The position numbers were made by a program, and so were the translations under genes. A stretch of DNA of 55,766 nt from Spirochaetota bacterium (lineage in GTDB: Bacteria; Spirochaetota; Spirochaetia; DTKZ01): contig JAOABU010000039.1 in the NCBI GenBank assembly GCA_026418195.1, positions 1 through 55,766 of the forward strand, in the 5' to 3' direction. This document shows, piece after piece, positions 17,108-49,488 of the stretch. The notes beneath the pieces were generated by a model, which worked only from the letters and a program-made list of their open reading frames with translations, was not told where the DNA came from and did not search any database. Position 1 is the stretch's first letter, and each line of letters opens with the position of its first letter.

Positions 17108-17911
17108 TTATCCAGTCGAGCCCTCCTCGTACTGCGTTAAGCGTTGATCGATTTCTTCCAACCGCTTCATGAGGGATTGGATGGTCTTTTCAATCCGTCG
17201 TTTTTCCTGCTTAAGCCGTTCTAACGGATCCTCTTCCTTTCGTTTCCGGGAAAACTCAGCCTTTACCCGGTCCGGGCTTTTCCCGCTTTTGAAGGCTTCT
17301 TCTGCCTTCTTTCGCTCTTCCTCGGTTTTCAACGAAGCAACCGTACGCATGTTCTCGAACCCTATCTCCGGATCTACGTTCAGAGCATGAATCCTCATAA
17401 GAACCCGGGCCGTGGTTCGATGGACCCCCAACACTCGATCTACGTAATCCTCAAACCGAGCATTGTGCTTTCGGCAGAGGGCTTCCGCTTCGGATAGGAG
17501 TTTCCCGAACTCCTTCATTAGGTGCCCATTTTTTGCAAGGAAAGAGGTCCGAATTCGATCGGTGAGAAGACGGAACTCCGCCTCCTGTTCGAACACATTC
17601 GTGTAGATGGATAGTTGTTCGGCACGTTCCAGCAGGTTATGGAACAGAGCCCAAAACTCCTGCGTGTGGGAACGTGTAGTGATGGGCACAGGAGAACGGG
17701 TAAAATGAAGATGGTGGGCGAACTCATGGATTGCCGTATAGATGAGGTCGTTTTCGCTTTTGAAGTTCCGGTTATGGATGATGATTTCCCGCCGCTCGGG
17801 GTGGTAGATCCCGTTTACTCGCTTACTCTGCTTGCCCGAAAAAATGACCTGAAACTCCTCCGTTTCCGGTTCCAATCGAAGAAGAAGCTCTTTGACCTGA
17901 TCTTGGTTCAT
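17108..17911 (-). CDS. HExxH zinc metallopeptidase-like protein with basic coiled-coil tail
   Basis: 267 aa. The N-terminal domain (about 1-120) holds HEFAHHLHF at about residues 62-70 and, some 14 residues on, HTQEFWALF: an HExxH plus H-x3-FW arrangement like that of YgjP/DUF45, WLM and SprT-type metallopeptidases, with two histidines and a third histidine as zinc ligands. Residues about 150-215 are helical; the C-terminus (about 215-260) is highly charged and predicted coiled coil (EERKKAEEAF, RLKQEKRRIEK). The frame extends to 17977, but that would run through the promoter; ATG at 17911 sits 6 nt after TATAGT. No signal peptide, so cytoplasmic. It is divergent from the ImuB/DnaE2 cassette. 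Substrate unknown; a link to DNA-protein crosslink repair is only a guess from position. Confidence 0.75.
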   Translation of the reverse strand: MNQDQVKELLLRLEPETEEFQVIFSGKQSKRVNGIYHPERREIIIHNRNFKSENDLIYTAIHEFAHHLHFTRSPVPITTRSHTQEFWALFHNLLERAEQLSIYTNVFEQEAEFRLLTDRIRTSFLAKNGHLMKEFGKLLSEAEALCRKHNARFEDYVDRVLGVHRTTARVLMRIHALNVDPEIGFENMRTVASLKTEEERKKAEEAFKSGKSPDRVKAEFSRKRKEEDPLERLKQEKRRIEKTIQSLMKRLEEIDQRLTQYEEGSTG

Positions 17912-17917
17912 TGCGCT

Positions 17918-17946
17918 ACTATACCGATGGAAGGGAAAGGATGCAA
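17918..17946 (-). promoter_or_regulatory. Leaderless-type promoter of the metallopeptidase gene
   Basis: TTGCAT (17941-17946), exactly 17 bp, TATAGT (17918-17923), then 6 nt to the ATG at 17911. Transcription is expected to begin on or beside the A of the start codon. There is no SD. Confidence 0.7.
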
Positions 17947-17962
17947 GGGAAACAGAGATCCC

Positions 17963-17991
17963 TTGAATACTAAACAATTGTGTAGTAGTAT
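17963..17991 (+). promoter_or_regulatory. Leaderless-type promoter of the DUF72-imuB-dnaE2 cassette
   Basis: TTGAAT (17963-17968), exactly 17 bp, TAGTAT (17986-17991), then 6 nt (TAGGGT) to the ATG at 17998. The spacer is filled by the palindrome described next. Confidence 0.7.
17968..17987. promoter_or_regulatory. 20-bp palindromic operator candidate, SOS-box-like
   Basis: TACTAAACAATTGTGTAGTA is symmetric at 9 of 10 base pairs (only 17973/17982 break). It lies between and overlaps the ends of the -35 and -10, so a bound dimer would block RNA polymerase. It has the same length and the same outer TACT/AGTA as the classic E. coli LexA box. That this organism's LexA binds it is an inference from the mutagenesis genes downstream. 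Confidence 0.6.
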
Positions 17992-17997
17992 TAGGGT

Positions 17998-18798
17998 ATG
18001 GATAGCCTGCCCTGTGATTTACGGATTGGCACCTCGGGGTTCGACTACCCGGAGTGGCGGGGGGTGTTGTACCCGGAGAATCTTCCCCGGGAAGAGTTCC
18101 TCCCTACCTATGCGTCAACCTTTTCCACGGTGGAGCTGAACTTTTCCTATTATCGGATCCCTCGGGAGGAACAGCTAGAGGGAATGCTGGAACGGGGTGG
18201 CTCCCGGTTAGACTTTTCCATCAAGGCTCATGAATCTCTCACCCACAAGGTGGATCCTGCCTCCTGGAAGGAGGCGGTAGCGGAGTATCGAAGGTCTCTC
18301 CGGCCCCTCCTTCGCTCAGGAAGACTCGTGGCAGTGCTCCTGCAGTTCCCCTACAGTTTCCACTACGATGCGGACCGACGGAAGTACCTCGATTCCTTAC
18401 TTCGGGAGCTGGATGGATTACCCCTAGTGGTGGAGTTTCGAAATGGGGCATGGCACACGCCCCGAGTCCTGGAGGCCCTTCGGGAGCGAGGGGTAGGGTT
18501 CTGCGCTACCGATATGCCGGATCTTAAGGGGTTGCCGCAGGAAGGGGAGGCAGTTACGGCTCCCCTTGCGTACCTACGGTTCCATGGCCGAAACCGGGAA
18601 ACCTGGTGGGGTTCGGATGCAGCGGCCCGGTTCGACTACCTCTACACCGAAGAAGAACTTCGTCAGTGGGTTCCCCGAATTCGTCGGATGAGCGCACAGG
18701 CGGCCCGGTTCCGGATCTACTTCAACAATCACCGAAAAGGACAGGCCGCGGTGAATGCCCGGATGCTGATCCAACTCCTCAACGGAAGCGGAGGATGA
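17998..18798 (+). CDS. DUF72 (YecE-like) protein
   Basis: 266 aa, usual length for the DUF72/YecE family, a TIM-barrel fold with no settled activity. Recognised from LRIGTSGFDYPEWRGVLYPE at the N-terminus, TFSTVELNFSYYRIP, the VLLQFPYSF strand, VEFRNGAWH near residue 145 and the YLRFHGRN and YIYFNNH-type endings (here FRIYFNNHRKGQAAVNA). Cytoplasmic. It is the first gene after the palindrome-covered promoter and begins 6 nt after its -10 without an SD. Downstream follow the ImuB-like and DnaE2-like genes, so it occupies the place that imuA often has in SOS mutagenesis cassettes; whether it takes part in DNA damage tolerance is not known. Confidence 0.9.
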   Translation: MDSLPCDLRIGTSGFDYPEWRGVLYPENLPREEFLPTYASTFSTVELNFSYYRIPREEQLEGMLERGGSRLDFSIKAHESLTHKVDPASWKEAVAEYRRSLRPLLRSGRLVAVLLQFPYSFHYDADRRKYLDSLLRELDGLPLVVEFRNGAWHTPRVLEALRERGVGFCATDMPDLKGLPQEGEAVTAPLAYLRFHGRNRETWWGSDAAARFDYLYTEEELRQWVPRIRRMSAQAARFRIYFNNHRKGQAAVNARMLIQLLNGSGG

Positions 18799-18875
18799 CA
18801 CGAACCTATTTAGGTTGCCTCGCCGAAGGGGGGAAGTAGTAGCGCATCGGATGTTCCTACAAGATGGAGTCAAGT

Positions 18876-20093
18876 ATGAGGGTAGGTAGGGTGGAGGAGT
18901 CCACCATCCTTCATGTGAACGTAACGGATTTCATGGCAGCGGTAGAGGAAGTTCGGGATCCTTCCCTCCGGGGGCGTCCCTTTGTGGTGGGATGGCAGGG
19001 GCGGAGCCGGGCCATTGTCCTTGCTGTATCGGAAACCGCCTTTCAGGAGGGGGTCCGTCGGGGGATGTGGTTGGAAGTGGCTCGTAAGAAGGTCCGTACC
19101 CTGAAGGTTCTCGCCCCTTGTTACGAGGTATACCATCGAGCCGATGCTCGGTTGGCCGAGGTGGCAAGGCGGTTTTCCCCGGTGGTGGAACAGAGGGGGG
19201 GAGGGCACCTGTACCTGGACCTTACGGGTACCCGGCGACTCTTTGGCCCACCTGTGGACTGTGCCGAACGGGTGCGAAAAGAAATCATCGAGGCTACCGA
19301 CCTCTTTCCCGCCCTGGGCCTTGCTTCGGCAAAGGTGGTATCCAAGGTGGGGACTCGGGTAGCACGTCCCTCTGGTTTTATCGCCGTCCCCCGGGGGGAG
19401 GAGCGGTCCTTCCTTGCCCCTCTCGATGTATCCCTTTTGCCCGGCGTAGGGGCACGACTTTTAACCCGGCTACACCTTTTACGAGTCCGCACCATTGGGG
19501 AGCTGGCCTCTCTTTCCGAAGAAGAGGCAGACGTGTTGGGACCCTACGGTCTAGTGCTACGAAACCGGGCCCTGGGAATGGACACCACTCCTTTAAAGGT
19601 TGGTAGTAGGGGTCTGGCCGGGCAACGAGGAACAGGTGAAAATACTCTATCCGCCGGAATCAGCCTTCCAGAGGATGCAAACGATGTTCATCTCCTTCTG
19701 TCTGCCCTTAGATCCCTCCTTTTCGATTTGGGTTTTACCCTTCGTACGCGGGGCCTATCTGCTAGAACCCTTCGACTGCAGGTCACCTATTCCGATGGGA
19801 TCCAGGCCCATGGCACATGGCGGTTCCCTACCCCCGTTTCCTCGGATGGTGAGCTGATGAAAGCAGGGCAGGTTCTTTTACCCCGAGTCTTGCGAAGGCG
19901 GATTCGGGTGCGAACCCTTCGATGCGATCTTGGCGGCCTCGAGCCAGAGACAGGGCAACTGGACATGGAAGGGATGCACGAAGGAAAGGTCCGAACCTTA
20001 CAGGAAAGCCTCGATCGAATCAGAAACCGATTCGGAAGGGAAGGGATTCGTCTCTGCGCGGATTTGGTGTTCCCATGTACGTTCCTCTCGTAG
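18876..20093 (+). CDS. imuB: Inactive Y-family polymerase, ImuB-like
   Basis: 405 aa. The fold of Y-family polymerases is clear: N-terminal ILHVNVTDFMAAVEEV, palm HLYLDLTGTRRLFG, helix-hairpin LLPGVGARLLTRLHLLRVRTIGEL and the little-finger region. Catalytic acids are gone: the first aspartate of the usual HVDxDxF is asparagine at residue 15, and the S-x-D-E pair of the palm is replaced by a glycine-rich EQRGGG around residue 105. That pattern is typical of ImuB, which acts as a scaffold tethering the DnaE2 polymerase to the clamp. QLDMEG near the C-terminus may be a decayed clamp-binding motif. ATG at 18876 is chosen over 18864 because GGAG lies 6 nt upstream of it. It overlaps dnaE2 by 19 bp. 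Confidence 0.87.
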   Translation: MRVGRVEESTILHVNVTDFMAAVEEVRDPSLRGRPFVVGWQGRSRAIVLAVSETAFQEGVRRGMWLEVARKKVRTLKVLAPCYEVYHRADARLAEVARRFSPVVEQRGGGHLYLDLTGTRRLFGPPVDCAERVRKEIIEATDLFPALGLASAKVVSKVGTRVARPSGFIAVPRGEERSFLAPLDVSLLPGVGARLLTRLHLLRVRTIGELASLSEEEADVLGPYGLVLRNRALGMDTTPLKVGSRGLAGQRGTGENTLSAGISLPEDANDVHLLLSALRSLLFDLGFTLRTRGLSARTLRLQVTYSDGIQAHGTWRFPTPVSSDGELMKAGQVLLPRVLRRRIRVRTLRCDLGGLEPETGQLDMEGMHEGKVRTLQESLDRIRNRFGREGIRLCADLVFPCTFLS

Positions 20094-23000
20094 TTCGATC
20101 AGCCTATTCCCTGCAATATGGAACTCGGATGCCTGCACAGGTAGTTCGGCATCTCTATATGTTGGGGTATCGCGTGATGGCACTGACGGATCGGAACAAC
20201 CTCTATGGAGTCCACGAGTTCCTCGAGGCCTGTAAGGATCTTGGGGTCCGTCCCATTCTCGGGGCTACCATCCAAAAGGGGCCCCACGAGGTGGCAATGC
20301 TGGTGAAGGAGGAGAAAGGATTTTCTAACCTTTGTCGTCTTCTCACCCGCAGGATGCTACAGCAAGATTCCTTCGAACTGATAAAAGAGCTGCCCGCTTA
20401 CTCGGAAGGGAACGCGGTGCTCGCACGGGATGTGGAACTCCTGGAACAGTGGCGCGGAAAGGTGGAAGACCTCTTTGTATGGATCCGAGGGTTGGATCGA
20501 TCCCTGTACCAGACGGCGAAACGACTAGGGATCCCTCCTGTGATTGCGCCGGAAGTCCTTCTTTACCAGCAGGAGGATCTAGAGGTCCATCGGGTGCTTG
20601 AGGCCATAGGTCGGCTGGGTACGATACAGACGGGTTCGATTTCTGTACAGGCTTTTGGTAGATCGAAATTGAAAGATCCTGTGTTTCTTTCCACCCCAAA
20701 ACTACCTGATCGAGCCTGCCTTTGGACAGGATTCCCGGCAGAAGAAAAGGAGATGGAATCCCGATTTGCCGTATATCCCGATGCCCTCGAGAATGTAGCC
20801 CGGTTGGCCGATCAATGCCGGTTCCAGGAAATCTTTCGGGGTTTCATCTTTCCTCGACTACCGAATGCACTCCTGTACCCCCATACACAGGAAAAGATTC
20901 CCGGATTCTCAGAAGAGGAAACCCGAAAGAGAATCGTGGCTCGGATGCTTCGGGATCAGGTACTGGCCGGTGCGGAAGAGAGGTATGGGGAGTTATCAGA
21001 AGGGATCCTGGAACGGATCGAGTATGAACTCTCCATCATTCAACAGAAGGGGTTTTCCGAGTATTTTCTAGTAGTGGCCGATATTGTTCGGCGGAGTCCC
21101 CGTACCTGTGGTCGAGGGAGTGCGGCAGCTAGTGTGGTGGCCTACTGTTTGGGTATCACCAATGTGGATCCCATTAAACACAATCTCTACTTTGAACGGT
21201 TCCTCAACCTTGACCGGCAGGATCCCCCGGACATAGACGTAGATTTTGCTTGGGACGAGCGTGATGCTGTAATTGAGGATGTATTCCGTCAGTATGGGGG
21301 AGAGCACTGTGCGAGGGTATGTAATCACGTGTTCTATCGGTTTCCCTCTGCCCTACGGGATACCGCACGGGTGTTTGGAATCCCAGAAGGGGAAATTACG
21401 GACTTTGAACGGAAACTTCGGAGAGATCTAGGATCCTGGGGGTCTGAGAGGGGGCCCTATGGCAACGGGAAGAATAGTCACGAGGACAAAAGAGAAGGAG
21501 CGAGTATTCGAAAAGAGGAATGGGGAAAACCATCCGTGGAGCAGCCTGCGGGTCAAAGATATCCATCCCCCTGGTCTGAAATAGTGAAGGTAGCGAAGCG
21601 GATCACGGGTCTCCCCCGTCATTTGAGTGTACATTCTGGAGGAGTGGTGATCACGCCAGAGCCCATCGATCAGTATGTGCCGGTGGAACGAGCTGAAAAA
21701 GGAGTCCCCATCGTTACCTGGGAAAAGGATGGGGTGGAAGCTGCTGGTCTGGTAAAGATCGATCTATTGGGCAACCGATCACTAGCAGTGATTCGGGATA
21801 CTCTGGAGAACTTGAAGCGGAACGGGCTTTCGGTAGGGGATCATTTCCGTGACCCTACCACAGATCCGGATACCCAGGCTTTACTGGCTCGGGGAGATAC
21901 GATTGGCGTGTTCTACGTGGAGTCTCCTGCCATGCGGCAGTTACAGGCAAAAACTGGGAAAGGAGATTTCGAACATTTGGTGATCCATTCCTCCATCATC
22001 AGACCAGCAGCCAATCGATTCATCAACCTCTACGTTCGCAGGCTCAAAGGAGAGCCATACCAGCCCCTGCATCCGGATCTGGATCGGATCCTATCGGAAA
22101 CGTACGGTATTCTCTGCTACCAAGAGGACGTGTCCAAGGTAGCTAGGGTACTGGCGGGATTTTCCAATTCCGATGCGGACGGGTTACGGAAGATCCTATC
22201 CAAGAAAAACAAGGAGGTTCGGTTAGCTCAGTACAGGGAACAGTTCTATGAAGGAGCTTTAAGGCGAGGTGTTTCCCGGGAAACCATCGATGCGGTTTGG
22301 GAGATGATCCTTTCCTTCGAAGGGTACTCCTTTTGCAAGGCCCACTCGGCTTCCTACGCAATGGTTTCCTTTCAATCCGCCTATCTCAAGGCTCATTACC
22401 CAGCCGAGTTCATGGCAGCCGTTCTTTCCAATCGGGGTGGATACTATACTCCGGCGGCATATATCAGCGAAGCGCGTCGGATGGGGCTCACCATCTTGGG
22501 ACCGGATGTGAATCAAAGTCTCTACCGGTACACGGGATGTGGAAAGGAGATCCGAGTGGGATTCGTGGAAGTGAAAGGACTTCACCGGGAAACGGTAGAG
22601 ACAATAGTGCGGGAACGCTCCCGAAAACCCTTCCAGAGCGTGGAGGACTTTGGCCTTCGTGTAGATTTGGTAGGTGAGGATGGGGAAGCACTCGTCTCTG
22701 TGGGAGCCCTGGATTCTGTAGCAGATGGGTTGTCCCGTACAGAACAACTCTGGATCCTGTTAAGGACCCAAACGGCGAAGCAGAAAGGGAATCAAGCAGG
22801 CAGGGTTCGATCCCTTTGGTATGCTATATCCCAAATGGATTCTTTGCCCAATAAGGTACCTACTCGATCTATCCGAGCTTTGGGGCAAACATCAGGGGAT
22901 CGCTCAACCCTTCTCCCGTACTCTGGTTCAGGGACAAAAGAAGATCAAACCCAAACGCGAGCTCGCTGGGAGGCGGAGTACCAGCGTCTGGGATTCTTAC

Positions 23001-23356
23001 TAGAGGGACATGCGCTCAATCTATGGGAACCGATTCCGGAACGATACCGGAAGGTGCAGGGAAAGGAGCTTCCTCGCCATATCGGTGAATGGGTGGAAAT
23101 GGTGGGTTGGCCTGTAACGAGCAAGGAAATCCTCACCCGAGAGGGAAAACCAATGGAGTTCGTCAGCTTTGAAGACGAAACGGCCATCTTTGAGACGGTT
23201 CTGTTCCCCAAAGCGTACGAACGGTATGCAGGAGTATTGGATGAACCCCGCCCTGTGATCATCCGGGGCACAGTACAGGAGGATCTAGGGGCGGTAGCCA
23301 TCCATGTGGAAGAACTTAGTCCGCTAGTTTCTCGGAAAAATCGGAAGGAACGCTGA
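20075..23356 (+). CDS. dnaE2: DNA polymerase III alpha-type, DnaE2/ImuC-like
   Basis: 1093 aa. Polymerase motifs are intact: PPDIDVDF near residues 384-391 carries two metal-binding aspartates, GLVKIDLLG near 559 the third, and CGRGSAAAS and SFCKAHSASYA are the C-family signatures; helix-hairpin-helix and an OB-type domain follow (about 880-1090). The N-terminal PHP domain has lost its histidines: the usual HxH reads VVRSAYS and TDH reads TDR, so no metal-dependent proofreading is expected. A charged insert (about 450-500) is not conserved. Start at 20075 gives the PHP N-terminus; a longer frame to 19922 lies inside imuB. Association with the ImuB-like gene marks it as the error-prone translesion enzyme rather than the replicative one. 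Its last 41 bp overlap the ferritin gene on the other strand. Confidence 0.88.
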   Translation: MYVPLVVRSAYSLQYGTRMPAQVVRHLYMLGYRVMALTDRNNLYGVHEFLEACKDLGVRPILGATIQKGPHEVAMLVKEEKGFSNLCRLLTRRMLQQDSFELIKELPAYSEGNAVLARDVELLEQWRGKVEDLFVWIRGLDRSLYQTAKRLGIPPVIAPEVLLYQQEDLEVHRVLEAIGRLGTIQTGSISVQAFGRSKLKDPVFLSTPKLPDRACLWTGFPAEEKEMESRFAVYPDALENVARLADQCRFQEIFRGFIFPRLPNALLYPHTQEKIPGFSEEETRKRIVARMLRDQVLAGAEERYGELSEGILERIEYELSIIQQKGFSEYFLVVADIVRRSPRTCGRGSAAASVVAYCLGITNVDPIKHNLYFERFLNLDRQDPPDIDVDFAWDERDAVIEDVFRQYGGEHCARVCNHVFYRFPSALRDTARVFGIPEGEITDFERKLRRDLGSWGSERGPYGNGKNSHEDKREGASIRKEEWGKPSVEQPAGQRYPSPWSEIVKVAKRITGLPRHLSVHSGGVVITPEPIDQYVPVERAEKGVPIVTWEKDGVEAAGLVKIDLLGNRSLAVIRDTLENLKRNGLSVGDHFRDPTTDPDTQALLARGDTIGVFYVESPAMRQLQAKTGKGDFEHLVIHSSIIRPAANRFINLYVRRLKGEPYQPLHPDLDRILSETYGILCYQEDVSKVARVLAGFSNSDADGLRKILSKKNKEVRLAQYREQFYEGALRRGVSRETIDAVWEMILSFEGYSFCKAHSASYAMVSFQSAYLKAHYPAEFMAAVLSNRGGYYTPAAYISEARRMGLTILGPDVNQSLYRYTGCGKEIRVGFVEVKGLHRETVETIVRERSRKPFQSVEDFGLRVDLVGEDGEALVSVGALDSVADGLSRTEQLWILLRTQTAKQKGNQAGRVRSLWYAISQMDSLPNKVPTRSIRALGQTSGDRSTLLPYSGSGTKEDQTQTRARWEAEYQRLGFLLEGHALNLWEPIPERYRKVQGKELPRHIGEWVEMVGWPVTSKEILTREGKPMEFVSFEDETAIFETVLFPKAYERYAGVLDEPRPVIIRGTVQEDLGAVAIHVEELSPLVSRKNRKER

Positions 23357-23846: not shown

Positions 23847-23881
23847 ACGCTGCTCCTTTCGGTAAAAAATTGTGTAGTTTA

Positions 23882-23910: not shown

Positions 23911-23941
23911 AATTTATAGCCTTCAGCGTATGGAATAGAGT

Positions 23942-26894: not shown

Positions 26895-26906
26895 GATCTT
26901 GACCTC

Positions 26907-29879: not shown

Positions 29880-29907
29880 TTTATATTGCATCAATTTTTG
29901 GTATACT
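29880..29907 (+). promoter_or_regulatory. Leaderless-type promoter of the HAD phosphatase gene
   Basis: TTTATA (29880-29885), 16 bp, TATACT (29902-29907), then exactly 6 nt (GGCCCC) to the ATG at 29914. The -35 matches 4 of 6. No SD is present. Confidence 0.6.
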
Positions 29908-29913: not shown

Positions 29914-30681
29914 ATGTATATACAGAAAAATTCAGAGATACAGCTTGTGGTATTGGACATAGATGGAGTTCTTACCGACGGAGAATCGGCTCCTTTCGAT
30001 CTGGATTTGTTCAAACAGCTGGCAGATTTAAACCAGCGTTCAAGGGACAAAGGGCTATTGGCAGAAGGGAGAATCGTGCCTCCTGTTACCGTTTGCACAG
30101 GAAGGCCCCAAGCGTACGTTGAAGCGGTACTTCAGGCTCTCCATGCTTCTGTGCCGGGTGTATTCGAAGGGGGTGCAGGGTTATACGTGCCTGAAGGTCG
30201 TCGGAGTATCCCCCATCCAGACATCAAGGAACGTACTCTCATGCGGACGGTACGGAGCACCTTGGAAGAGGAGGTAGAGAGGGATGCTAGTATCTATCTA
30301 CAACCAGGGAAGGAGTTCACCGTTAGCGTGTTTCCCCGAGGTAAGAACACACCGGTGGGGCTTAAAGAGCGAGTGGTGGCTCTGCTAGGAGAAAGAGCTA
30401 AGGAATTGGAACTTTTATATTCTGCTTCCTGTCTTAACATACTGCCTAAAGGAATCCATAAAGGGAAGGGTATAGAGTTCCTTTCTGCCTGGTTGGGAGT
30501 TCCCCTGTCCGCGATACTTGCGGTAGGGGACTCAGAAGTAGATATCCCCATGTTTCAGAAAGTGGGGTATAGAGCAGCTCCGGCCAATGCGACACCCGAG
30601 GTAAAGGCGTTATCCGATTACGTGTCGCCCTTTCATACTGCGCAGGGGCTACGAGACATACTGAATCGATTTAGAGTATAA
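29914..30681 (+). CDS. HAD-superfamily phosphatase, subfamily IIB
   Basis: 255 aa. Motif I is VVLDIDGVLTDG (nucleophile D15, acid D17), motif II TVCTGRP near residue 63, motif III lysine in IHKGKGIEFL near 183, and motif IV LAVGDSEVDIPMF near 205. The C2-type cap lies between motifs II and III. This is the layout of Cof-type sugar phosphatases, mannosyl-3-phosphoglycerate phosphatase and the archaeal-type phosphoglycolate phosphatase. It is divergent from the LacI-controlled transport operon and 66 nt before an aldo-keto reductase, so a role in clearing a sugar phosphate is likely but not shown. The ATG follows the -10 by 6 nt without SD. Confidence 0.87.
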   Translation: MYIQKNSEIQLVVLDIDGVLTDGESAPFDLDLFKQLADLNQRSRDKGLLAEGRIVPPVTVCTGRPQAYVEAVLQALHASVPGVFEGGAGLYVPEGRRSIPHPDIKERTLMRTVRSTLEEEVERDASIYLQPGKEFTVSVFPRGKNTPVGLKERVVALLGERAKELELLYSASCLNILPKGIHKGKGIEFLSAWLGVPLSAILAVGDSEVDIPMFQKVGYRAAPANATPEVKALSDYVSPFHTAQGLRDILNRFRV

Positions 30682-31833: not shown

Positions 31834-32709
31834 TCAACGTGTCGACTGCATCCGATCCTGCACATCCTCTACCGATCCGGTGAAAATACCGGGCTTTTCC
31901 ATCTTGATGCTGGTAAGGGCTGCCGCATACGACACAGCCTCCTGAATGGGGTGGTGTAACCTCCAGTAGAGGTAAGAAGCGAAGCAGGTATCCCCCCTTC
32001 CCGTTCGGCCGGACAGGTTGCGGGGAGTGAAGGGGGCACGGAAAAAATTTCCATCCTTCAGTACGATAACTTCTGTGTTGTGGGTTACCATCACTTCTTC
32101 TGGCCCGTACTTCGCTAGAATTCTCGCAGCTTCCTCCCGATTCTGCTGGCCTGTGAGAACCTCGGCTTCTGCTGCGTCTGTTTTCAAGAACGTGATATGG
32201 GGAAGGATTCCCTCCTTGTTCTCTAGATCCTGGAATCCGAGAGTTCCCCCACCCATGTTCCGCCGCAAAAGCCCCTGAGCATCCACTGCTACTCTATATT
32301 TGCAGGCAAGAGCAGGGATCAGGGTAACGGGGATTTCTCCATAGAAAAGACCCGCTAGATGGAGTACAGAAGTCTGGAAAGGGGGGATTTCGTCCAGCGT
32401 GAAAGGATCTGCCTGGGATAGAAGGGTGACTTTCCTTCGTTCCCGGTCCTCGGAGAAGTACTCGTTTCGAATCGAAGTGCTGGTAGGACTAGGCACAACA
32501 AGGATCTCCACGTTGGGATGTCGCATTACATCCAGAAGGGGTAAATCTTCCTTAGCAGCTTTAGTAATCACTAGAACCTTTGCGCCGGAACGAGCGGCGG
32601 CTGCTGAGGAGTACACTACAGCCCCTCCTAGAAGCCTCTCTTCTTTGCCTCCATACACCATAATGTCTTTCGATACATGACCTATCATGACAATGTCATA
32701 CTGTTTCAT
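31834..32709 (-). CDS. PfkB-family carbohydrate kinase
   Basis: 291 aa, ribokinase fold. The catalytic anion-hole motif is GRTGRGDTCFASY near residue 240, with the base aspartate in GRGD. The N-terminal DIVMIGHVSKDI and GGAVVYSSAAAARSGAKV give the substrate-binding face. ATP-dependent phosphorylation of a sugar, polyol or nucleoside is expected, and the substrate is open. The frame runs to 32727, but AGGAGGG lies 7 nt before the ATG at 32709, so that start is preferred. Divergent from the second importer and convergent with the aldo-keto reductase, so it may be part of the same catabolic set. Confidence 0.9.
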   Translation of the reverse strand: MKQYDIVMIGHVSKDIMVYGGKEERLLGGAVVYSSAAAARSGAKVLVITKAAKEDLPLLDVMRHPNVEILVVPSPTSTSIRNEYFSEDRERRKVTLLSQADPFTLDEIPPFQTSVLHLAGLFYGEIPVTLIPALACKYRVAVDAQGLLRRNMGGGTLGFQDLENKEGILPHITFLKTDAAEAEVLTGQQNREEAARILAKYGPEEVMVTHNTEVIVLKDGNFFRAPFTPRNLSGRTGRGDTCFASYLYWRLHHPIQEAVSYAAALTSIKMEKPGIFTGSVEDVQDRMQSTR

Positions 32710-32751
32710 CAGATACCCTCCTACCATAAAAAAAAAGATTCGACAATCTGC

Positions 32752-38559: not shown

Positions 38560-38620
38560 AGTAGAAATAAGTATAGTGTATTTTCGAAAAAAATGTAGGG
38601 GGATGGAATAGATTTTGTAG

Positions 38621-41557: not shown

Positions 41558-41578
41558 AGATTCCCTCCATTTTCAAAA

Positions 41579-43173: not shown

Positions 43174-44633
43174 TGAGTTGCCTCTCGGACCTGATGGATT
43201 TCGTCCTCCCCTTCAGGCAAGGGGCGGCCAATTTCCGCTACCCGGTATCCGAATCCAGTTGAACCCAACGTGCTTAAGTCCAAGCATCCATGGATTCTTC
43301 GGTATAAGCCAGGATGTACCGCAGCTTCTAGCTTGGATGCTTCAGGGTAGAACTGCATAGAGTTTGACTCCACACCAAGGATGGTTCCTGCATGGGAAGC
43401 CAGCAATACATGGGGAATCTGAGCTAACATGGGATTGGTAAGATCTTGTACCATTAAAGTCATCCCATGGGCTTTTGCCCAACAGAGGCTCAATAGGGCA
43501 CCTGTTTGAGTCTTGCAAGTTTTTAATGCCACCCCGGTCCAACCTAGGGTACGACCCATCCGAAGGTATCTCCAGTCATGGGCACTCTCGTCCATGAAAA
43601 GGGGCTTGCGTGCACTAACGGAGTGAACGTCCAGAGGGTGGGCGTGTAGGTCGTACGGAAAAGGCTGTTCGATATAGAGGATGGATGCATAGATCCGTGG
43701 ATATTCCCACAAAAGCCGGTCCAATATCTCGGTTACATAGACAGGATCCTGTACCGTACAGTTGAAGTCCGCCGTGAGCCAATCGACGTTCTGGGCAAGA
43801 GCAATTCGACCGACGGCCACTATTCGCTGGTAATCCCACTGGGGATCGATCCCTGTGAGTTTGATTTTCAAGGCAGTTAGTCCGTCAGTGCGGATCCAGT
43901 CAGAAAGGAGGAGCGGGTATCCATCTTGAGGTTCGCTACCAGTAAGGTCCCGTTCGTCTAAGGGGTCTTTCCCTCCTACAAGGTGCCAAGCCTTCAATAC
44001 TCGTTCTGGCGGGGATCGGAAAAAATCTACGGGATATTTCCCTCTAAACCGTTTGACATCGGCATGGGTATTCTCCAGTGGATCATAGAAGGAGGCCAGA
44101 TCCTGGTTCATGTATTCTTTCGTATACGTGCTGTAGGTAGGGACCTGATGGGCATTCCCGTACGCATCGTGCAAGGCTAGATCGAAGGGGCTGGAACACA
44201 CGAGAGCGGCTAACCAGGGAAGGGGTCCTACGGGATCGTTCTCATTAGTCTCCTTTGATCCTTCAGCAATGTACGTACGATGGATGGTTGGTAGCACCTC
44301 CTCCAAAAACGCATGTCCTAGTTCCATGGGGTGTCCCCATTGTTCGAATTTCCGAAAGGCACCTAGAAGGATCCGGGTGAACTCTTTTAGTTTCGTCTCC
44401 CGAACTCGATAGGGTGCCTCCGAAGGCCACACCCAGGCTACGCTCAATGGAGTTTCCCCCCACCCCTCTGCTGTCTTTCCATTACGAGTTTCTACAACCA
44501 TACGTACTCGGGCGCAGGTGACCTCATAGGTAGTTTCGGGACCGAATTTCAAAGGAATTCGAGTTTTGATAGGTAAAAAGTAGAGGGAGACTTCCCGGAT
44601 CCGGACATCTTTTATGTTGCCCATGGTTCCCAT
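43170..44633 (-). CDS. Enolase-superfamily enzyme (mandelate racemase/muconate-type)
   Basis: 487 aa, longer than the usual 360-450. Active-site order is that of the superfamily: general-base lysines in LKIKLTG near residue 275, metal ligands in TADFNC (D), YIEQPF (E) and MDESAHD (D/E), and the second lysine region in VALKTCKTQTG near 378. It should abstract an alpha-proton from a carboxylate, as in acid-sugar dehydratases and muconate cycloisomerases; the reaction is open. The N-terminal capping domain is extended. The start is ATG at 44633: it lies 6 nt after the -10, although the frame runs to 44660. First gene of the operon, divergent from the ROK repressor. Confidence 0.88.
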   Translation of the reverse strand: MGTMGNIKDVRIREVSLYFLPIKTRIPLKFGPETTYEVTCARVRMVVETRNGKTAEGWGETPLSVAWVWPSEAPYRVRETKLKEFTRILLGAFRKFEQWGHPMELGHAFLEEVLPTIHRTYIAEGSKETNENDPVGPLPWLAALVCSSPFDLALHDAYGNAHQVPTYSTYTKEYMNQDLASFYDPLENTHADVKRFRGKYPVDFFRSPPERVLKAWHLVGGKDPLDERDLTGSEPQDGYPLLLSDWIRTDGLTALKIKLTGIDPQWDYQRIVAVGRIALAQNVDWLTADFNCTVQDPVYVTEILDRLLWEYPRIYASILYIEQPFPYDLHAHPLDVHSVSARKPLFMDESAHDWRYLRMGRTLGWTGVALKTCKTQTGALLSLCWAKAHGMTLMVQDLTNPMLAQIPHVLLASHAGTILGVESNSMQFYPEASKLEAAVHPGLYRRIHGCLDLSTLGSTGFGYRVAEIGRPLPEGEDEIHQVREATQ

Positions 44634-44639
44634 AGAGTC

Positions 44640-44667
44640 AGGATACCATAGAAACCCCATTTGTCAA
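44640..44667 (-). promoter_or_regulatory. Leaderless-type promoter of the enolase-type operon
   Basis: Perfect TTGACA (44662-44667), 16 bp, TATCCT (44640-44645) on the minus strand, then 6 nt to the ATG at 44633. No SD. Confidence 0.7.
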
Positions 44668-44680
44668 GTAATTGCACAAA
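44660..44680. promoter_or_regulatory. Candidate operator between the divergent promoters
   Basis: An imperfect inverted repeat, TTTGT-N11-ACAAA, overlaps the -35 of the enolase-type operon. Arms TTTGT/ACAAA recall XylR-type ROK sites. The short arms make this a weak call. Confidence 0.35.
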
Positions 44681-44686
44681 ATAAAG

Positions 44687-44715
44687 TTGCGAAAGATCCA
44701 GGAACGTGGTATCGT
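44687..44715 (+). promoter_or_regulatory. Leaderless-type promoter of the ROK gene
   Basis: TTGCGA (44687-44692), exactly 17 bp, TATCGT (44710-44715), then 6 nt (ACAGGT) to the ATG at 44722. Mirrors the divergent promoter in spacing. Confidence 0.68.
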
Positions 44716-44721
44716 ACAGGT

Positions 44722-45927
44722 ATGACCAAGTGGGTAAAGACAGATGAACTGGAACGGGTGAACACGCGGAATGTCCTTAGGACCATCGAACTGGAAAATG
44801 GTCTTTCCCGAGCGCAGGTAGCAAGAAGATTGGGCTTGAGTCGGACTACCATCTCTACGATCGTATCGAAACTCATAACCGTGGGATTCGTAACGGAAAA
44901 ACAATCGAAAGCTAAGGGTAGAGGTCGACCGGGGATCCATCTGAGCCTCACTTCGGAACGGTGGTATGCTATTGGTGCAGAGTTCCATTCCAAGAAATGG
45001 GTGGCAGTCATAACGGATTTAGAAGGTAGGGTTCTCAAGATTTCGGAAACCCCCTTAAAAAAGGAGGATGTGGATTCGTTCCTTCTGGGATTAAAGGATA
45101 CTATACGGAGGATACTGAAGGATTTGCCAGGAGCTATGCTTCCTGCTATAGGGGTGGGCACACCAGGGCTCGTGGATTGTGAGAAGGGAGTAATCCTTCG
45201 GGCAGACGATTTTGGGTGGAGACAAGTAGAAGTAAAGAAATACCTAGAGGAAGAGTTGGGGATAAAGACCTTTGTTCTTAATAGACATCGGGCGGGGGGC
45301 TTGGCAGAGTCCCGATTTGGAGTGGGAAGGAAGGTCCACAATCTGGTGTACATAGGAATCGGAACCGGGATCAGTGCGGCTTTTATCTCGGATGGTATTT
45401 TAATCCATGGAGCCAATTATTCGGCGGGTGAAATCGGACATATGATTGTGGATCCGGGGGGAGACCGGTGTGGATGTGGAAAAACGGGATGCCTGCAGGC
45501 AGTCGCCTCAGGTTCAGCCCTTGTTCGGAGGGCTCAAGAAGCCCTGCGGAGGGGAGAAGCTTCTTCTCTCAGGGGGGTGATGGAAAGTGAAGGAGGCGAG
45601 TTGTCCGGTGAGCTCATTTGCAAAGAGGCTGCTAAGGGAGATCCGCTTTCCCTTCGGTGTGTGGAACATGCAGCTAGGTTCCTAGGCATCGCAGTGGCGA
45701 ACATCATCAATAGCTTTAATCCAGATTTGGTGATCATCGGAGGACCTGTAGGTCAGACGGGTGATCCGCTTGTCCGCTTGATACGGGAAGAAGCGGCAAA
45801 ATGGGCGATGGAGCATCCCTTTTCCGCAACCCGAATCGTCCAAGGGGTGCTAGGTGAGACAGTAGGAGCCCTAGGGGCTGCTTGCCTGGTACTGGATCGA
45901 AAACTGGAACTCGTCTGTACAGAATAA
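44722..45927 (+). CDS. ROK-family transcriptional repressor
   Basis: 401 aa. N-terminal winged HTH (about 10-75): RNVLRTIELENGLSRAQVARRLGLSRTTIST. The ROK fold follows, with the zinc motif GDRCGCGKTGCLQAVAS near residue 256 preceded by GEIGHMI. The phosphate-binding loop of ROK sugar kinases is not clear, which together with the HTH points to a repressor (NagC/XylR type) that binds a sugar-like effector. The frame runs from 44614, but the ATG at 44722 gives the HTH its usual start and sits 6 nt after the -10. Divergent from the enolase-type operon, which it probably controls. Confidence 0.9.
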   Translation: MTKWVKTDELERVNTRNVLRTIELENGLSRAQVARRLGLSRTTISTIVSKLITVGFVTEKQSKAKGRGRPGIHLSLTSERWYAIGAEFHSKKWVAVITDLEGRVLKISETPLKKEDVDSFLLGLKDTIRRILKDLPGAMLPAIGVGTPGLVDCEKGVILRADDFGWRQVEVKKYLEEELGIKTFVLNRHRAGGLAESRFGVGRKVHNLVYIGIGTGISAAFISDGILIHGANYSAGEIGHMIVDPGGDRCGCGKTGCLQAVASGSALVRRAQEALRRGEASSLRGVMESEGGELSGELICKEAAKGDPLSLRCVEHAARFLGIAVANIINSFNPDLVIIGGPVGQTGDPLVRLIREEAAKWAMEHPFSATRIVQGVLGETVGALGAACLVLDRKLELVCTE

Positions 45928-45939
45928 GGGAAGAACCTT

Positions 45940-46488
45940 CTAAAGTCCTCTACGGAATTCCTCGAAAAGAGGATCCTTTAAAACGAGTTGGCTGATTTCT
46001 TCAACGATCTGCTGGATCTGTTTACCTTCTGTTTGGTATCGCAGATCTGCTGCAGAAAGGTACTTGTGACCGTGGTTTTCCCAGAGAAGGCGAAGATCTT
46101 CTTCCTGCGACTTGGCGCTAGGATTCACCCGGGGACGATTGGCTTTTTCTACCCGTCGAGCAAGTTCTGGGATGGAAGCTTCTAGAAGGATCACAGGACC
46201 TGTACCCGCCAGTATGTCCCGGTTCCACTCGTACCGAACCGTTCCACCAGCCATGCTTACGATGGCTGAGGAAGATCGAGATAGACGGGCTAAGTCTTTA
46301 CAAATGGAGTATTCAATTTCCCGGTAAGGAACCCATCCCTGCTCTTGGACGAGTGTATGGAAGGAGCATCCTGCTCTCCGGTCGATCTCTTGGTCAATAT
46401 CGTAGAAAGGGAGAGAGAACAACTCTGCAATTCGTTTCCCAATGGTAGTTTTCCCCGACCCAATCAAGCCACAGAAGTAGAGGTTCAC
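45940..46488 (-). CDS. aroK: Shikimate kinase
   Basis: 182 aa, normal length for AroK, which phosphorylates shikimate in the chorismate pathway (cytoplasm). Walker A is CGLIGSGKTTIGKR near residues 6-19, the shikimate-binding DIDQEIDRR follows at about 30, MAGGTVRY is the GGG-type loop near 80, and NRPRVNP marks the lid region near 120. The start is uncertain: GTG at 46488 (6 nt after TATATT) fits the fold best; a TTG at 46512 is upstream. Neither has an SD; the sequence before the TTG is CTCCTCCT, the reverse of one. Monocistronic, with no other aro gene visible in the window. Confidence 0.88.
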   Translation of the reverse strand: MNLYFCGLIGSGKTTIGKRIAELFSLPFYDIDQEIDRRAGCSFHTLVQEQGWVPYREIEYSICKDLARLSRSSSAIVSMAGGTVRYEWNRDILAGTGPVILLEASIPELARRVEKANRPRVNPSAKSQEEDLRLLWENHGHKYLSAADLRYQTEGKQIQQIVEEISQLVLKDPLFEEFRRGL

Positions 46489-46494
46489 AGAAAG

Positions 46495-46500
46495 AATATA
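46495..46500 (-). promoter_or_regulatory. -10 element of aroK
   Basis: TATATT on the minus strand, 6 nt before the GTG at 46488. No acceptable -35 was found, so it is supported mainly by the repeated 6-nt spacing. Confidence 0.4.
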
Positions 46501-46581
46501 CCCGGAAGTCAAAGGAGGAGGGAAGGGGGTGTAACTCCATTAGAGTTATAGTACTGTAAGTACAAATGAATACTCTGGTCC

Positions 46582-46591
46582 TTGGCGCCAA
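46582..46591. repeat. Short palindrome
   Basis: TTGGCGCCAA is perfectly symmetric and lies on the aroK 5' side. Too short to call a regulator. Confidence 0.3.
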
Positions 46592-46833
46592 AGTGGCTAC
46601 GGGGCACAGTGGGTGGCTACGCTATTCCTGAATCGAGAAATCGGAACTAAGATAATCGTGCGCGAACGATGAATCTCAGGAAAGAACTTCTACATGATAA
46701 AAGTCTTGAACTCATCAGGGGTAGCATAGATTCCTTTTCTTTCAGGCAGATCTCGAACCTTTTAACTCTTTGGAAACTCAAGATGGTTGGTCTGGGTACA
46801 ACGGGCTATATAAAGGAAAGAACAAGGAGCCCT

Positions 46834-46855
46834 GTCTTTCCCACTTGGGAAAGAC
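46834..46855. repeat. Perfect inverted repeat, 10-bp arms
   Basis: GTCTTTCCCA and TGGGAAAGAC are separated by 2 nt. There is no T-run on either side. It could be an operator, or the hairpin that ends the SpoIID/LytB transcript on the minus strand, whose stop lies about 100 bp away. Confidence 0.5.
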
Positions 46856-46903
46856 CAGCAGGATCAATGTGGTACATCTTATCTTTGAATTGGGAGGAAT
46901 CCG

Positions 46904-46957
46904 ATGCCCGTAATGTACAATAATGAGCCAATCGATACTCCTCAGGGATCTGTGTAA
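46904..46957 (+). CDS. Possible 17-residue peptide
   Basis: The frame MPVMYNNEPIDTPQGSV ends at TAA 46955-46957 and is preceded by GGGAGG with good spacing. It has no recognised relative and lies next to the 3' end of the SpoIID/LytB gene. It could also be chance. Confidence 0.2.
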   Translation: MPVMYNNEPIDTPQGSV

Positions 46958-49261
46958 CTACCTGGTAAGGCTGTTAGAGAAATAGTTCACGAACTGTGAA
47001 TTAGGATAGTAGTGCTTCAAAATTTCTTCTGCAGTATATCCAATGGAAGCCATTCCTGCGGCTCCGCTTTGATCGAGCCCAACTCCATGCCCCCAACCTC
47101 CCCCATTGAAGATGAAGTATTCCGGATATCCATCTTTTCCTACCTTTACCCGAAGGGTGAATAGGGTGCTGCGAAGCCCCCCTAACACAATTCGTACTCG
47201 GTCTCCCCGTAGCCGGATGGAGCCTCCTTCGGTACGGATTTCTATTTCCTTCACTCGACCTGATATTCCTCGTCCTCGGGTAAGGATAGCTGTAATTCGA
47301 CCAGGAGGGGCCTCGCGACCCAAACGGGACAGGATTTCCTCTGGTGTTACCCATCGTTCCCATCGGTATGCTTCCGGGAAATGGAATCCAGGCATGGAAG
47401 CAAAGGCGGGAGGTGTACCTCGAAGCCAATCAGTCAATTGAACCAGAGAAACGTACTCGGTTCGCTCTGCAGTAAGAAGGTCGGGTACAGGGGGTAGTGT
47501 ATCGGAATACCCCCATACTGCTTCAGTTCCTTCCCCATACCCCCCATTATTCGCATGGTAGTAAGCCACTAAAGGGCCCTGTGCAGTGCATAGGTAGATT
47601 CCTCGAGTGTCATCTGTTGCTTGAGTCGTTCGAGGGTGTTCGCTTTCCACACCCCTGTAACTAGCCGATCGGGTACTTCCATATACATCGAAGGGTTTAT
47701 CCTTCGATTGAGCCATCATGGCCAGGCTGTAGGATCGAGCGGCAATGGCCTGGGCTTTAAGGGCTTCCATGGGCCAGGAAGCAGGAATTTCGGAGGGGAG
47801 AACGGAGTAGAGGTACTCTTCCAGGCTTACGAAGTTGATGAGCTGGAAGCTCTCTTCGGAAGGCACTACCTGGAAGGCCCCCCGATAGGAACGGTCAGAA
47901 ATGGAAGCGATAAAGCTACCTGCCTCGGTCACTAGATCGAAAAGAAGTACGGTAGAACTCGCTTCGATAGGTATTAGAAGCACCCCAGTGAAAGCTGTCT
48001 CAGATTTAGGGGAAAAAGGCCCCCCCCCAAGACTCCGTTTCTCTATTGCAAGGTTTGTAGCGGTAGGTATCGGTTCAACGTTCGACGAGTTCATTGAAGC
48101 CGGTTTGACCGATGACAGGGATAGCGTCGCTGGTAATACAAGGGGCCGAATTTCGGGATCCGAAGGTTCCTGGGGTTCTTTCAAGAAGAGTCGGTAGATT
48201 CCTGGTGAGAGGATCACTTGTTCCTCTTCTCCATCTGGATTGATCCATTTCGCTATATAGGGAGAAGATATTTTGAAAGAGAGGGAAGAAAGATGTTGGG
48301 CTAAGGAGACTCGAATCGTGGGGACCTTCGAAATTTCCCCAGAGAAAGGAAGGATCCGAGCCGGTACTTTTTGAAGGAGTTTCTGTCGAGTTGCCTCCGA
48401 AACCTTTGCCACTAGCTCGGGATGTTGTTCCTGAAGCAGGGAGAGGCGATCTCGAAACTCTTTTTGACGAGGAAGGATCTGAACCAACCTGCTAAGGAGG
48501 GCATACCCTTCCTGAATCTTGCCCTGGGCTAGAACTGTTTCACTCTGCGCGATGAGAGCGGGAAGAAAACTTCCATCTTTTCTTAACGCGGAACGGAAGG
48601 CAGCTTCACCTTCTGCCATCCGTCCTAGGGCTACGAGGGCTTTCCCTAGAAAATACCAAGGAGCTGGCCGGTTATCCTCCAAAGAAATAGCCGCGCGGAA
48701 ACGGGAAATGCTATCTTCAATGGAACCTTCTTCTAAGGCGAGGAGTCCTTCGAATAGGTATGATTCTGCGGAAGGCTCGGATAGGGGAAGGAACGATTTG
48801 GCGGTGATAGGATCTCCTGCTAGTACAGCGGCGATGAACAGTTCCCGCTTCAGCCTTGCATCATCTATATAGGTGTGAAGAAGGAAGCTTCCAATTCTCT
48901 TGAGAGTTGACAAGTAAACATGGTTGGTAGAGGGTCCCAAAGGACCTATTTCCTGGTATAACCGGAAGAGCTCCGCTGAAAGGGCGGGATCCATAACTGA
49001 AAAGGCATGTTTTAGAATCTCTATACTCTCTTCCATCCTACCCTTGTAGTAGGCATCGATGGCAGAGCGTAGAAGAGAGACCCCGATGGACTGGCTTGTG
49101 GAGCTTTGGTTTGTGGCTGGGAATAGGTTCCCTGAGTAGGGAACGCTTTGACCGTATCCGGTAATAGAGATGTAGGGAAGAACGATACAAAAGGCAACAA
49201 AGAACCCTATGTAGAACTGCGAATAGAAAAAACGGTGTTTAACGATCAGCCTCCACAGCAC
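46958..49261 (-). CDS. SpoIID/LytB-domain protein with TPR-like repeats
   Basis: 767 aa from a GTG. A signal-anchor occupies about residues 15-35. Residues about 60-290 are helical repeats of TPR type (AIDAYYKGRMEESIEILKHAF, then ALEEGSIEDSISRFRAAISL and LGRMAEGEAAFRSALRKDG). The C-terminal part (about 450-760) is the SpoIID domain: the catalytic glutamate lies in SVLPSEIPASWP near residue 490, followed by AIAARSYSL, YYHANNGGYG and NGGGWGHGVGLDQSGAAGMA. SpoIID proteins are lytic transglycosylases on peptidoglycan, so this probably trims the wall in the periplasm; the TPR part may bind partners. It overlaps the zinc-ribbon gene by 16 bp. A weak SD (AGTGGA) precedes the GTG. Confidence 0.87.
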   Translation of the reverse strand: MLWRLIVKHRFFYSQFYIGFFVAFCIVLPYISITGYGQSVPYSGNLFPATNQSSTSQSIGVSLLRSAIDAYYKGRMEESIEILKHAFSVMDPALSAELFRLYQEIGPLGPSTNHVYLSTLKRIGSFLLHTYIDDARLKRELFIAAVLAGDPITAKSFLPLSEPSAESYLFEGLLALEEGSIEDSISRFRAAISLEDNRPAPWYFLGKALVALGRMAEGEAAFRSALRKDGSFLPALIAQSETVLAQGKIQEGYALLSRLVQILPRQKEFRDRLSLLQEQHPELVAKVSEATRQKLLQKVPARILPFSGEISKVPTIRVSLAQHLSSLSFKISSPYIAKWINPDGEEEQVILSPGIYRLFLKEPQEPSDPEIRPLVLPATLSLSSVKPASMNSSNVEPIPTATNLAIEKRSLGGGPFSPKSETAFTGVLLIPIEASSTVLLFDLVTEAGSFIASISDRSYRGAFQVVPSEESFQLINFVSLEEYLYSVLPSEIPASWPMEALKAQAIAARSYSLAMMAQSKDKPFDVYGSTRSASYRGVESEHPRTTQATDDTRGIYLCTAQGPLVAYYHANNGGYGEGTEAVWGYSDTLPPVPDLLTAERTEYVSLVQLTDWLRGTPPAFASMPGFHFPEAYRWERWVTPEEILSRLGREAPPGRITAILTRGRGISGRVKEIEIRTEGGSIRLRGDRVRIVLGGLRSTLFTLRVKVGKDGYPEYFIFNGGGWGHGVGLDQSGAAGMASIGYTAEEILKHYYPNSQFVNYFSNSLTR

Positions 49262-49488
49262 ATTCCACTACCGCACGCTCCCTGCTCAAACCCATTACCA
49301 CAGGAGGAACTGCAACAAGGAGGTTCTGTCTGGGAGGATCGAGTAGGAGCATGATGGACAGCAAAGGTACTAAACTGCTTTTTTAGTTTTGTAGATCCAC
49401 AGCTAGGGCACTGTATCTCGGTATTCCCTAGAACGAGGGTTTCAAATTTCTGCCCACATTTGGTACAGGTATATTCAAAAATTGGCAT
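49246..49488 (-). CDS. FmdB-type zinc ribbon protein
   Basis: 80 aa. MPIFEYTCTKCGQKFETL, with CxxC at 8-11, and the second pair CPSCGSTKLKK near residue 33 form the CxxC zinc ribbon of the FmdB family, whose role is unclear. The C-terminus is rich in cysteine and glycine (PPCCSSSCGNGFEQ, CGSGMCCGG), more than in most FmdB proteins, and may bind metal. The ATG has no SD and sits 7 nt after a TATAGT. First gene of a two-gene unit with the SpoIID/LytB gene, whose start it overlaps. Divergent from the prenyltransferase. Confidence 0.85.
   Translation of the reverse strand: MPIFEYTCTKCGQKFETLVLGNTEIQCPSCGSTKLKKQFSTFAVHHAPTRSSQTEPPCCSSSCGNGFEQGACGSGMCCGG

What the first reader, a model, noticed from the sequence alone, without database searches (positions are those of the whole stretch)
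17911..49488. Recurring -10-to-start spacing of 6-7 nt at first genes: predicted leaderless mRNAs
First genes share a layout: -35, 16-18 bp, -10, then 6 or 7 nt, then the start codon, with no SD. Examples: 17911 (TTGCAT-17-TATAGT-6), 17998 (TTGAAT-17-TAGTAT-6), 29914 (TTTATA-16-TATACT-6), 44633 (TTGACA-16-TATCCT-6), 44722 (TTGCGA-17-TATCGT-6), 49488 (TAGACA-18-TATAGT-7), and outside this span 5166 (TTGAAC-17-TAGGAT-7). 17016 and 46488 have GTG starts with -10s at 7 and 6 nt; 5098, 7605, 7673 and 38559 have them at 9-11 nt. Operon-internal genes nearly all have strong SDs, and ferritin, the LacI operon and the second importer have ordinary leaders, so the signal is not a window-wide bias. Leaderless transcripts are well known in Actinobacteria and Deinococcus-Thermus; I know of no description as a general habit in spirochaetes.
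Basis: partly seen in the sequence, partly recalled or inferred. Interest (0 to 1): 0.75.

Follow-up and report, generated by a model that had tools for sequence, protein, structure and literature searches.

The report
Leaderless mRNAs in an uncultured spirochaete
In this uncultured spirochaete about a quarter of the genes that begin a transcription unit appear to have their promoter so close to the start codon that the messenger RNA would begin at the gene itself, without the usual ribosome-landing leader; the pattern is real and shared with relatives, but leaderless messages were already known from other spirochaetes.

Summary
All seven fully specified promoters and the six further -10 positions are there, and the pattern is genome-wide. 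In 797,602 own bases, with starts called blind to upstream signals, a sigma-70-like promoter lies 5-9 nt before the start in about 26% of 224 first genes (48 of 149 strong best promoters, 16.6 expected, P=5e-12), but in 1.6% of 250 internal genes, 89% of them SD-led. First genes of three groups of other phyla show no excess. Spacing 6-7 is kept in 9 of 9 orthologues in relative G001. At parA the layout recurs in 25 of 30 class loci (19 of 19 of one family, 6 of 11 others) and in 0 of 20 from other classes. Leaderless, or at most about 5-nt-leader, mRNA is the best explanation; no 5' ends were measured. The claim that this is undescribed in spirochaetes fails: Leptospira interrogans dRNA-seq (PMC5243855) and a 2011 survey (PMC3160421). 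Less expected are 62-67-bp divergent regions whose two -35 boxes overlap.

The parts
17963..17991 (+). promoter TTGAAT-17-TAGTAT, 6 nt before ATG 17998 (DUF72 gene)
   Evidence: spacing kept in G001; G004 has TATAAT 6 nt before an in-frame GTG
17918..17946 (-). promoter TTGCAT-17-TATAGT, 6 nt before ATG 17911 (SprT-like gene, divergent from DUF72)
   Evidence: identical spacing in G001
29880..29907 (+). promoter TTTATA-16-TATACT, 6 nt before ATG 29914 (HAD hydrolase)
   Evidence: spacing kept in G001 although the 6 nt changed
44640..44667 (-). promoter TTGACA-16-TATCCT, 6 nt before ATG 44633 (enolase-superfamily protein)
   Evidence: kept in G001; my gene caller chose the upstream ATG 44660, which lies inside this promoter
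44687..44715 (+). promoter TTGCGA-17-TATCGT, 6 nt before ATG 44722 (ROK regulator)
   Evidence: kept in G001
49496..49525 (-). promoter TAGACA-18-TATAGT, 7 nt before ATG 49488 (Zn_ribbon_8 protein)
   Evidence: kept in G001 and G002 with diverged flanks; differently arranged in most more distant genomes, judged by eye
5130..5158 (+). promoter TTGAAC-17-TAGGAT, 7 nt before ATG 5166 (M20 peptidase); its -35 overlaps by 5 bp the -35 of the divergent promoter
   Evidence: spacing kept in G001 and G002
5108..5136 (-). promoter TGTTCA-17-TATAAT, 9 nt before ATG 5098 (HAD); 67-bp divergent pair with 5166
   Evidence: kept in G001 and G002
17024..17029 (-). -10 TATACT, 7 nt before GTG 17016
   Evidence: -10, spacing and GTG kept in G001
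46495..46500 (-). -10 TATATT, 6 nt before GTG 46488 (shikimate kinase)
   Evidence: G001 has TATACT 6 nt before ATG behind an upstream region with no similarity visible by eye
7617..7622 (-). -10 TATAGT, 11 nt before ATG 7605 (alanine racemase): predicted leader of about 5 nt
   Evidence: spacing 11 in G001 and G003; G002 has TAAAGT in the same register
7656..7661 (+). -10 TATACT, 11 nt before ATG 7673: predicted short leader; 67-bp divergent pair with 7605
   Evidence: spacing 10 in G001 and 9 in G002, so not fixed
38570..38575 (-). -10 TATACT, 10 nt before ATG 38559 (GAF-HD protein): predicted short leader
   Evidence: kept in G001, not in G003

Best explanation
About a quarter of the first genes of transcription units in this uncultured spirochaete are transcribed from sigma-70-type promoters whose -10 ends 5-9 nt (mode 6) before the start codon, so that RNA polymerase, which usually starts about 7 nt after the -10, begins at or within about 3 nt of the start codon. 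The mRNA is then leaderless or nearly so and must be initiated from its 5'-terminal start codon without Shine-Dalgarno pairing; operon-internal genes use Shine-Dalgarno sites. Shown here: promoter position, -35 coupling, lack of a clear SD at most of these genes, conservation of the spacing. Inferred: the transcript 5' end and the mode of initiation.
For: Blind start calls: 48 of 149 strong best promoters at 5-9 nt in 224 first genes (16.6 expected, P=4.7e-12) against 10 of 90 (10.0 expected) in 250 internal genes; 53 of 224 first genes above 0.5 posterior, 44 of these 53 without SD above 0.5. Null in-frame ATGs give 1.2% and 0% (166 each). First genes of Bacteroidota (12 of 165, 18.3 expected), Clostridia (2 of 36, 4.0) and other phyla (3 of 27, 3.0) show no excess. 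-35s are better at spacing 6-7 than elsewhere. All 9 window genes with spacing 6-7 keep it in G001, with spacer bases changed at 29914, 46488 and 49488. parA has TAnnnT 5-9 nt before its start in 25 of 30 class loci; its start is fixed by the fold, Pfam AAA_31 aligning from residue 3. Excess also in class members G226, G016, G015, G032, and in G001, whose sample is partly homologous to the window.
Against: No 5' ends were measured. Pyrimidine at -1 is only suggestive (21 of 25 at spacing 6-7 versus 58 of 92 SD-led genes, Fisher P=0.056), and ATG preference (41 of 44 versus 78 of 92) is weak and untested. 9 of 53 own candidates also carry an SD-like string; so do 7 of 9 in G016 and 3 of 6 in G015. 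G033 shows no excess (3 of 30, 3.3 expected), family member G005 is underpowered (4 of 17, 1.9 expected, P=0.11), and G031 is weak (8 of 35, 3.9 expected) with 4 of 14 in internal genes. In 13 pooled named spirochaete loci (40 first genes) the TANNNT excess at 6-7 is small (5, background 3.1) and the -35s at 5-8 are not better than elsewhere (2.67 versus 3.05). The zinc-ribbon gene is of this type clearly only inside the genus.
Confidence: 0.86

Rival explanations
1. Short-leader transcripts: start sites scatter so that most of these mRNAs carry leaders of 1-8 nt, too short for an SD; initiation is then not truly leaderless.
For: Spacings of 8-11 also occur (EM weights 0.049, 0.044, 0.010, 0.023 at 8, 9, 10, 11), and 7673 varies 11/10/9 between relatives.
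Against: The mode is 6, then 7 (0.093, 0.063), which with the usual 7-nt distance puts +1 on or one base before the start codon; spacing 6-7 was kept in 9 of 9 orthologues in G001.
Confidence: 0.25
2. Start codons are misplaced: the true starts lie downstream behind SD sites and the promoters have ordinary leaders.
For: Start calling is imperfect: my caller chose 44660 for 44633 and 16983 for 17016, and ATG 32727 is probably wrong.
Against: A downstream start with SD within 40 codons is no more common in leaderless candidates (2 of 44) than in SD-led genes (8 of 92); parA and Zn_ribbon_8 starts are anchored by family profiles.
Confidence: 0.06
3. Chance or composition: TA-rich intergenic DNA near starts gives spurious -10 matches and the reader picked the good ones.
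For: TANNNT is common (about 5.6 per position in 224 sequences); the window is richer than the rest (9 of 20 versus 33 of 146 first genes); 9 of 63 non-spirochaete parA loci also have such a box at 5-9.
Against: The peak stands with the window removed, and is absent in own internal genes and in first genes of three other-phyla groups; the spacing is conserved.
Confidence: 0.03

Closest known systems
Leaderless transcripts of Leptospira interrogans (dRNA-seq, PMC5243855; abstract and passages seen)
   Same: Same phylum; 430-450 genes with a primary start within 10 bp of the start codon, 184 and 170 exactly at it at the two temperatures; many other genes have leaders.
   Different: Experimental; the authors identified no promoter motif apart from sigma 54, whereas here E. 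coli-like -35/-10 boxes are found. Leptospira belongs to another class (recalled).
Predicted leaderless genes in bacteria (Zheng et al. 2011, PMC3160421; Table 2 passage and section 7 read)
   Same: Same signal (TA-like box upstream of the start); Spirochaetes listed with 6 of 18 genomes, mean 3.9% of genes, range 1.8-6.9%.
   Different: 53 of 636 called genes (8.3%) here, by a different method; the main text names none of Treponema, Leptospira, Borrelia, Brachyspira or Spirochaeta.
Bidirectional promoters of E. coli (PMC12825309; abstract and introduction read)
   Same: Promoter DNA that can seat RNA polymerase in two mutually exclusive directions.
   Different: There the shared element is the -10 and divergent start sites are most often 18 bp apart (10 and 23 also common); here the -35s overlap by 5 bp and the start codons are 62-67 bp apart.
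Leaderless genes of Actinobacteria and Deinococcus-Thermus (PMC3160421, section 7)
   Same: TAnnnT-type signal before the start codon.
   Different: There around 20% and 40% of genes; lower here.

Membership tests
Leaderless mRNA genes | -10 element about 6-7 nt before the start codon, enriched over other distances | tested here: met
Leaderless mRNA genes | No Shine-Dalgarno site before the start | tested here: met
   44 of 53 candidates without SD above 0.5; 5166, 17998 and 5098 in the window are ambiguous
Leaderless mRNA genes | Transcript 5' end at the start codon | not testable with these tools
   No RNA data; pyrimidine at -1 only suggestive, P=0.056
Leaderless mRNA genes | AUG start preferred | tested here: inconclusive
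   41 of 44 versus 78 of 92 in SD-led genes, counted without a significance test; 17016 and 46488 have GTG
Leaderless mRNA genes | Initiation directly at the 5'-terminal codon by the ribosome | not testable with these tools
   needs translation assays
Bidirectional promoters (shared -10 type) | Shared -10 element with divergent start sites about 10-23 bp apart | tested here: not met
   In the compact pairs the overlapping elements are the -35s and start codons are 62-67 bp apart

The most novel reading that the evidence does not exclude
Leaderless initiation is an ancestral mode in the class of this genome, fixed at some genes such as parA/soj in several families, and it makes possible a minimal divergent cassette of 62-67 bp in which two leaderless genes share one -35 heptamer (TTGNCAA type), so that polymerase can occupy only one direction at a time and the two genes are transcribed in competition.
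Probability: 0.3. Interest if true: 0.6.

Novelty: new member of a known kind. Interest (0 to 1): 0.42.

Why it matters
It extends leaderless transcription, in silico, from Leptospira to another spirochaete class, that of the Treponema-named relatives, with recognisable sigma-70-type promoters, so that gene starts and promoters can be predicted there from sequence. Gene finders that look only for SD sites may misplace such starts. Genes that keep the arrangement across families (parA above all) are a natural test set for how these ribosomes start on bare 5' ends.

Tried and rejected
Raw pattern counts without gene context (TANNNT-N-ATG with and without a -35) were too noisy to use across genomes. 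A 16S rRNA search of the own genome found none, so the anti-SD was not read; it is inferred from SD use in internal genes. Conservation of the zinc-ribbon promoter outside the genus was looked for in 23 loci and, by eye, not found apart from a possible box at 10 nt in G258. The DUF72 palindrome was searched in 797,602 own bases as ATACTA-N8-12-TAGTAT with no hit; the own copy does not fit that pattern either, so this says little. parA: of 38 class genomes besides the own in the search, 29 were examined; 8 with weaker hits (7 of family f20 and one of f13) were not fetched and one had no match. The 20 loci from other classes come from 19 families; one has a box at 10 nt, and in L271 the aligned stretch begins one codon after its ATG. 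Of 67 non-spirochaete loci 63 were used for the parA count (4 dropped because the match or the locus began too late) and 9 have TAnnnT at 5-9. Of 13 named spirochaete loci 12 were used (L074 starts inside parA); 8 have the box at 6-9, L063, L067, L071 and L073 do not. Treating all 60-70-bp gaps as shared-promoter units was rejected: of 8 pairs of 62-67 bp, 7 have best -35s overlapping by 5 bp but only 4 of those 7 have both promoters scoring above 2, and the 61-bp pair rests on a start call I think wrong (44660). The 60-70-bp class was chosen after seeing the gaps.
Full report
What was checked. The window is contig C28 of a 3.13-Mb, 158-contig genome. All thirteen sites in the finding are present as described.

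Genome-wide test. I called genes with a codon model and a start-codon prior only, blind to upstream signals: 636 genes in 797,602 bases. First genes have a divergent upstream neighbour at 30 bp or more, or a same-strand neighbour at 100 bp or more (n=224); internal genes have a same-strand neighbour closer than 30 bp (n=250). With a fixed E. coli-like promoter model and free distance, 26.2% of first genes have a promoter at 5-9 nt, 0.0% at 0-4, 3.9% at 10-14; for internal genes 1.6% at 5-9. The SD fraction is 0.51 in first and 0.89 in internal genes; the SD model is permissive, giving 0.25-0.30 on null ATGs. Without the window the figure is 24.0%. Distance weights peak at 6 and 7 (0.093, 0.063). 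In the first sample of 166 first genes, -35 boxes are better at spacing 6-7 (3.87 of 6) than at 9-18 (2.83), 19-35 (2.83) or random positions (2.49).

Controls. In-frame internal ATGs gave 1.2% and 0%. The same pipeline on first genes in loci of Bacteroidota (n=259), Clostridia (69) and other phyla (59) gave no excess at 5-9; internal genes of the other-phyla loci gave 5 of 25 (2.8 expected, P=0.14). Genomes of the class: G001 12 of 28 strong promoters at 5-9 (P=1.9e-5; its sample is partly homologous to the window), G226 16 of 56 (2.8e-4), G016 9 of 25 (0.001; 7 of its 9 candidates also SD-like), G015 6 of 13 (0.0016), G032 14 of 63 (0.008), G031 8 of 35 (0.035; internal genes 4 of 14), G005 4 of 17 (0.11), G033 3 of 30 (0.66). 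In 13 pooled named spirochaete loci the signal was weak: 5 TANNNT at 6-7 against 3.1, with no better -35s. So the habit is seen in several families but not everywhere; samples are 100-200 kb each.

Conservation. In G001 (69-88% DNA identity over the main window pieces) all nine window genes with spacing 6-7 (5166, 17016, 17911, 17998, 29914, 44633, 44722, 46488, 49488) keep the spacing exactly. At 46488 the upstream DNA shows no similarity by eye, the start is GTG here and ATG in G001 and the hexamer TATATT here and TATACT there, yet the 6-nt spacing is the same. At 49488 TATAGT at 7 nt is kept in G001 and G002. At 44633, 44722 and 17911 the whole region is conserved, so spacing alone is not singled out there. 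Of the four sites at 9-11 nt, three keep their spacing in G001 (5098, 7605, 38559) and 7673 changes from 11 to 10. The DUF72 gene has TATAAT 6 nt before an in-frame GTG in G004; by eye G018 and G033 have TAnnnT boxes 7 and 6 nt before an ATG, while G016 is unclear.

parA. The own parA has TATACT 7 nt before ATG. Among the 30 loci returned (own plus 29 class genomes, the best of 198 phylum genomes searched, chosen by similarity to the own protein), 25 have TAnnnT with at least 4 of 6 matches at 5-9 nt; two more have it at 10, one of them with an unclear start (L252); three have none (two of family f29, one of f30). 19 of the 30 are from family f25 and all 19 have it; the other 11 give 6 (own f1, f28, three of f8, one of f30). 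In L228, L229 and L246 I placed the start at the ATG two codons inside the aligned stretch. Eight class genomes with weaker hits were not looked at. None of 20 loci from other classes has the box at 5-9, one has it at 10; 9 of 63 non-spirochaete loci have it at 5-9. parA is anchored at its N-terminus, so the start codon is secure. The zinc-ribbon gene, by eye, is arranged otherwise in nearly all 23 loci outside the genus: the state appears to be gained and lost gene by gene.

Divergent pairs. In 7 of 8 pairs of 62-67 bp the best -35s on the two strands overlap by 5 bp, as in TTGACAA/TTGTCAA; in 4 of these 7 both promoters score above 2. A single good TTGACAA offers a near-consensus -35 on the other strand for nothing, so the weaker cases may be one-sided. 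If both work, polymerases must exclude each other (inference). This differs from the shared -10 bidirectional promoters of E. coli (PMC12825309, abstract and introduction read).

Literature. [quoted passage not shown] Zheng et al. 2011 list Spirochaetes with 6 of 18 genomes (PMC3160421, passages and section 7). The searches for leaderless with spirochaetes, Treponema (19), Leptospira (38), gene-start tools (40), Treponema denticola (41), Borrelia burgdorferi (44) and spirochete plus promoter (64) listed, as far as titles and abstract starts show, no other experimental account in spirochaetes. Two RNA papers on Borrelia (which I recall to be in the same class) bear on this: an RNA-seq study with no use of the word leaderless (PMC5051733, passages) and a 5'-end map that is not held (PMC5314773; known only from a reference list). 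I therefore do not claim that leaderless transcripts are undescribed in the class.

Mechanism and verdict. Shown: position, -35 coupling, conservation. Inferred from the usual -10 to +1 distance of 7 bp (stated in PMC12825309): transcripts begin at or within about 3 nt of the start codon at spacings 5-9 and carry about 3-5 nt at 9-11. I file it as a new member of a known kind: leaderless genes, here in an uncultured spirochaete lineage. It is solid and useful, not surprising in kind.

Noticed in passing
window 17968-17987 (+): Near-palindrome TACTAaACAATTGTgTAGTA between the -35 and -10 of the DUF72 gene; relative G016 has TACTATAC-N4-GTATAGTA after a TTGAAT at the corresponding place. Looks like an operator of an unknown repressor.
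   Followed up: partly
window 32707-32727 (-): The ORF start at 32727 follows nine T's that are kept in G001 and G003, but an AGGAGG and an ATG at 32709 lie just downstream, so the pfkB-family kinase more likely starts at 32709 with an ordinary SD.
   Followed up: partly
own sample, divergent pairs of 62-67 bp: L193, C1 7117/7182, L012, L020, L009, window 5098/5166, C36 28187/28255: Best -35 boxes of the two strands overlap by exactly 5 bp in 7 of 8 such pairs (the eighth, window 7605/7673, has no overlap); the C36 pair looks like a signal peptidase I against a PEGA-containing protein (names from reading the sequences, no family search).
   Followed up: partly
G031 internal genes (L168-L172): 4 of 14 strong promoters at 5-9 nt also in operon-internal genes of this genome (1.6 expected, P=0.06).
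   Followed up: no
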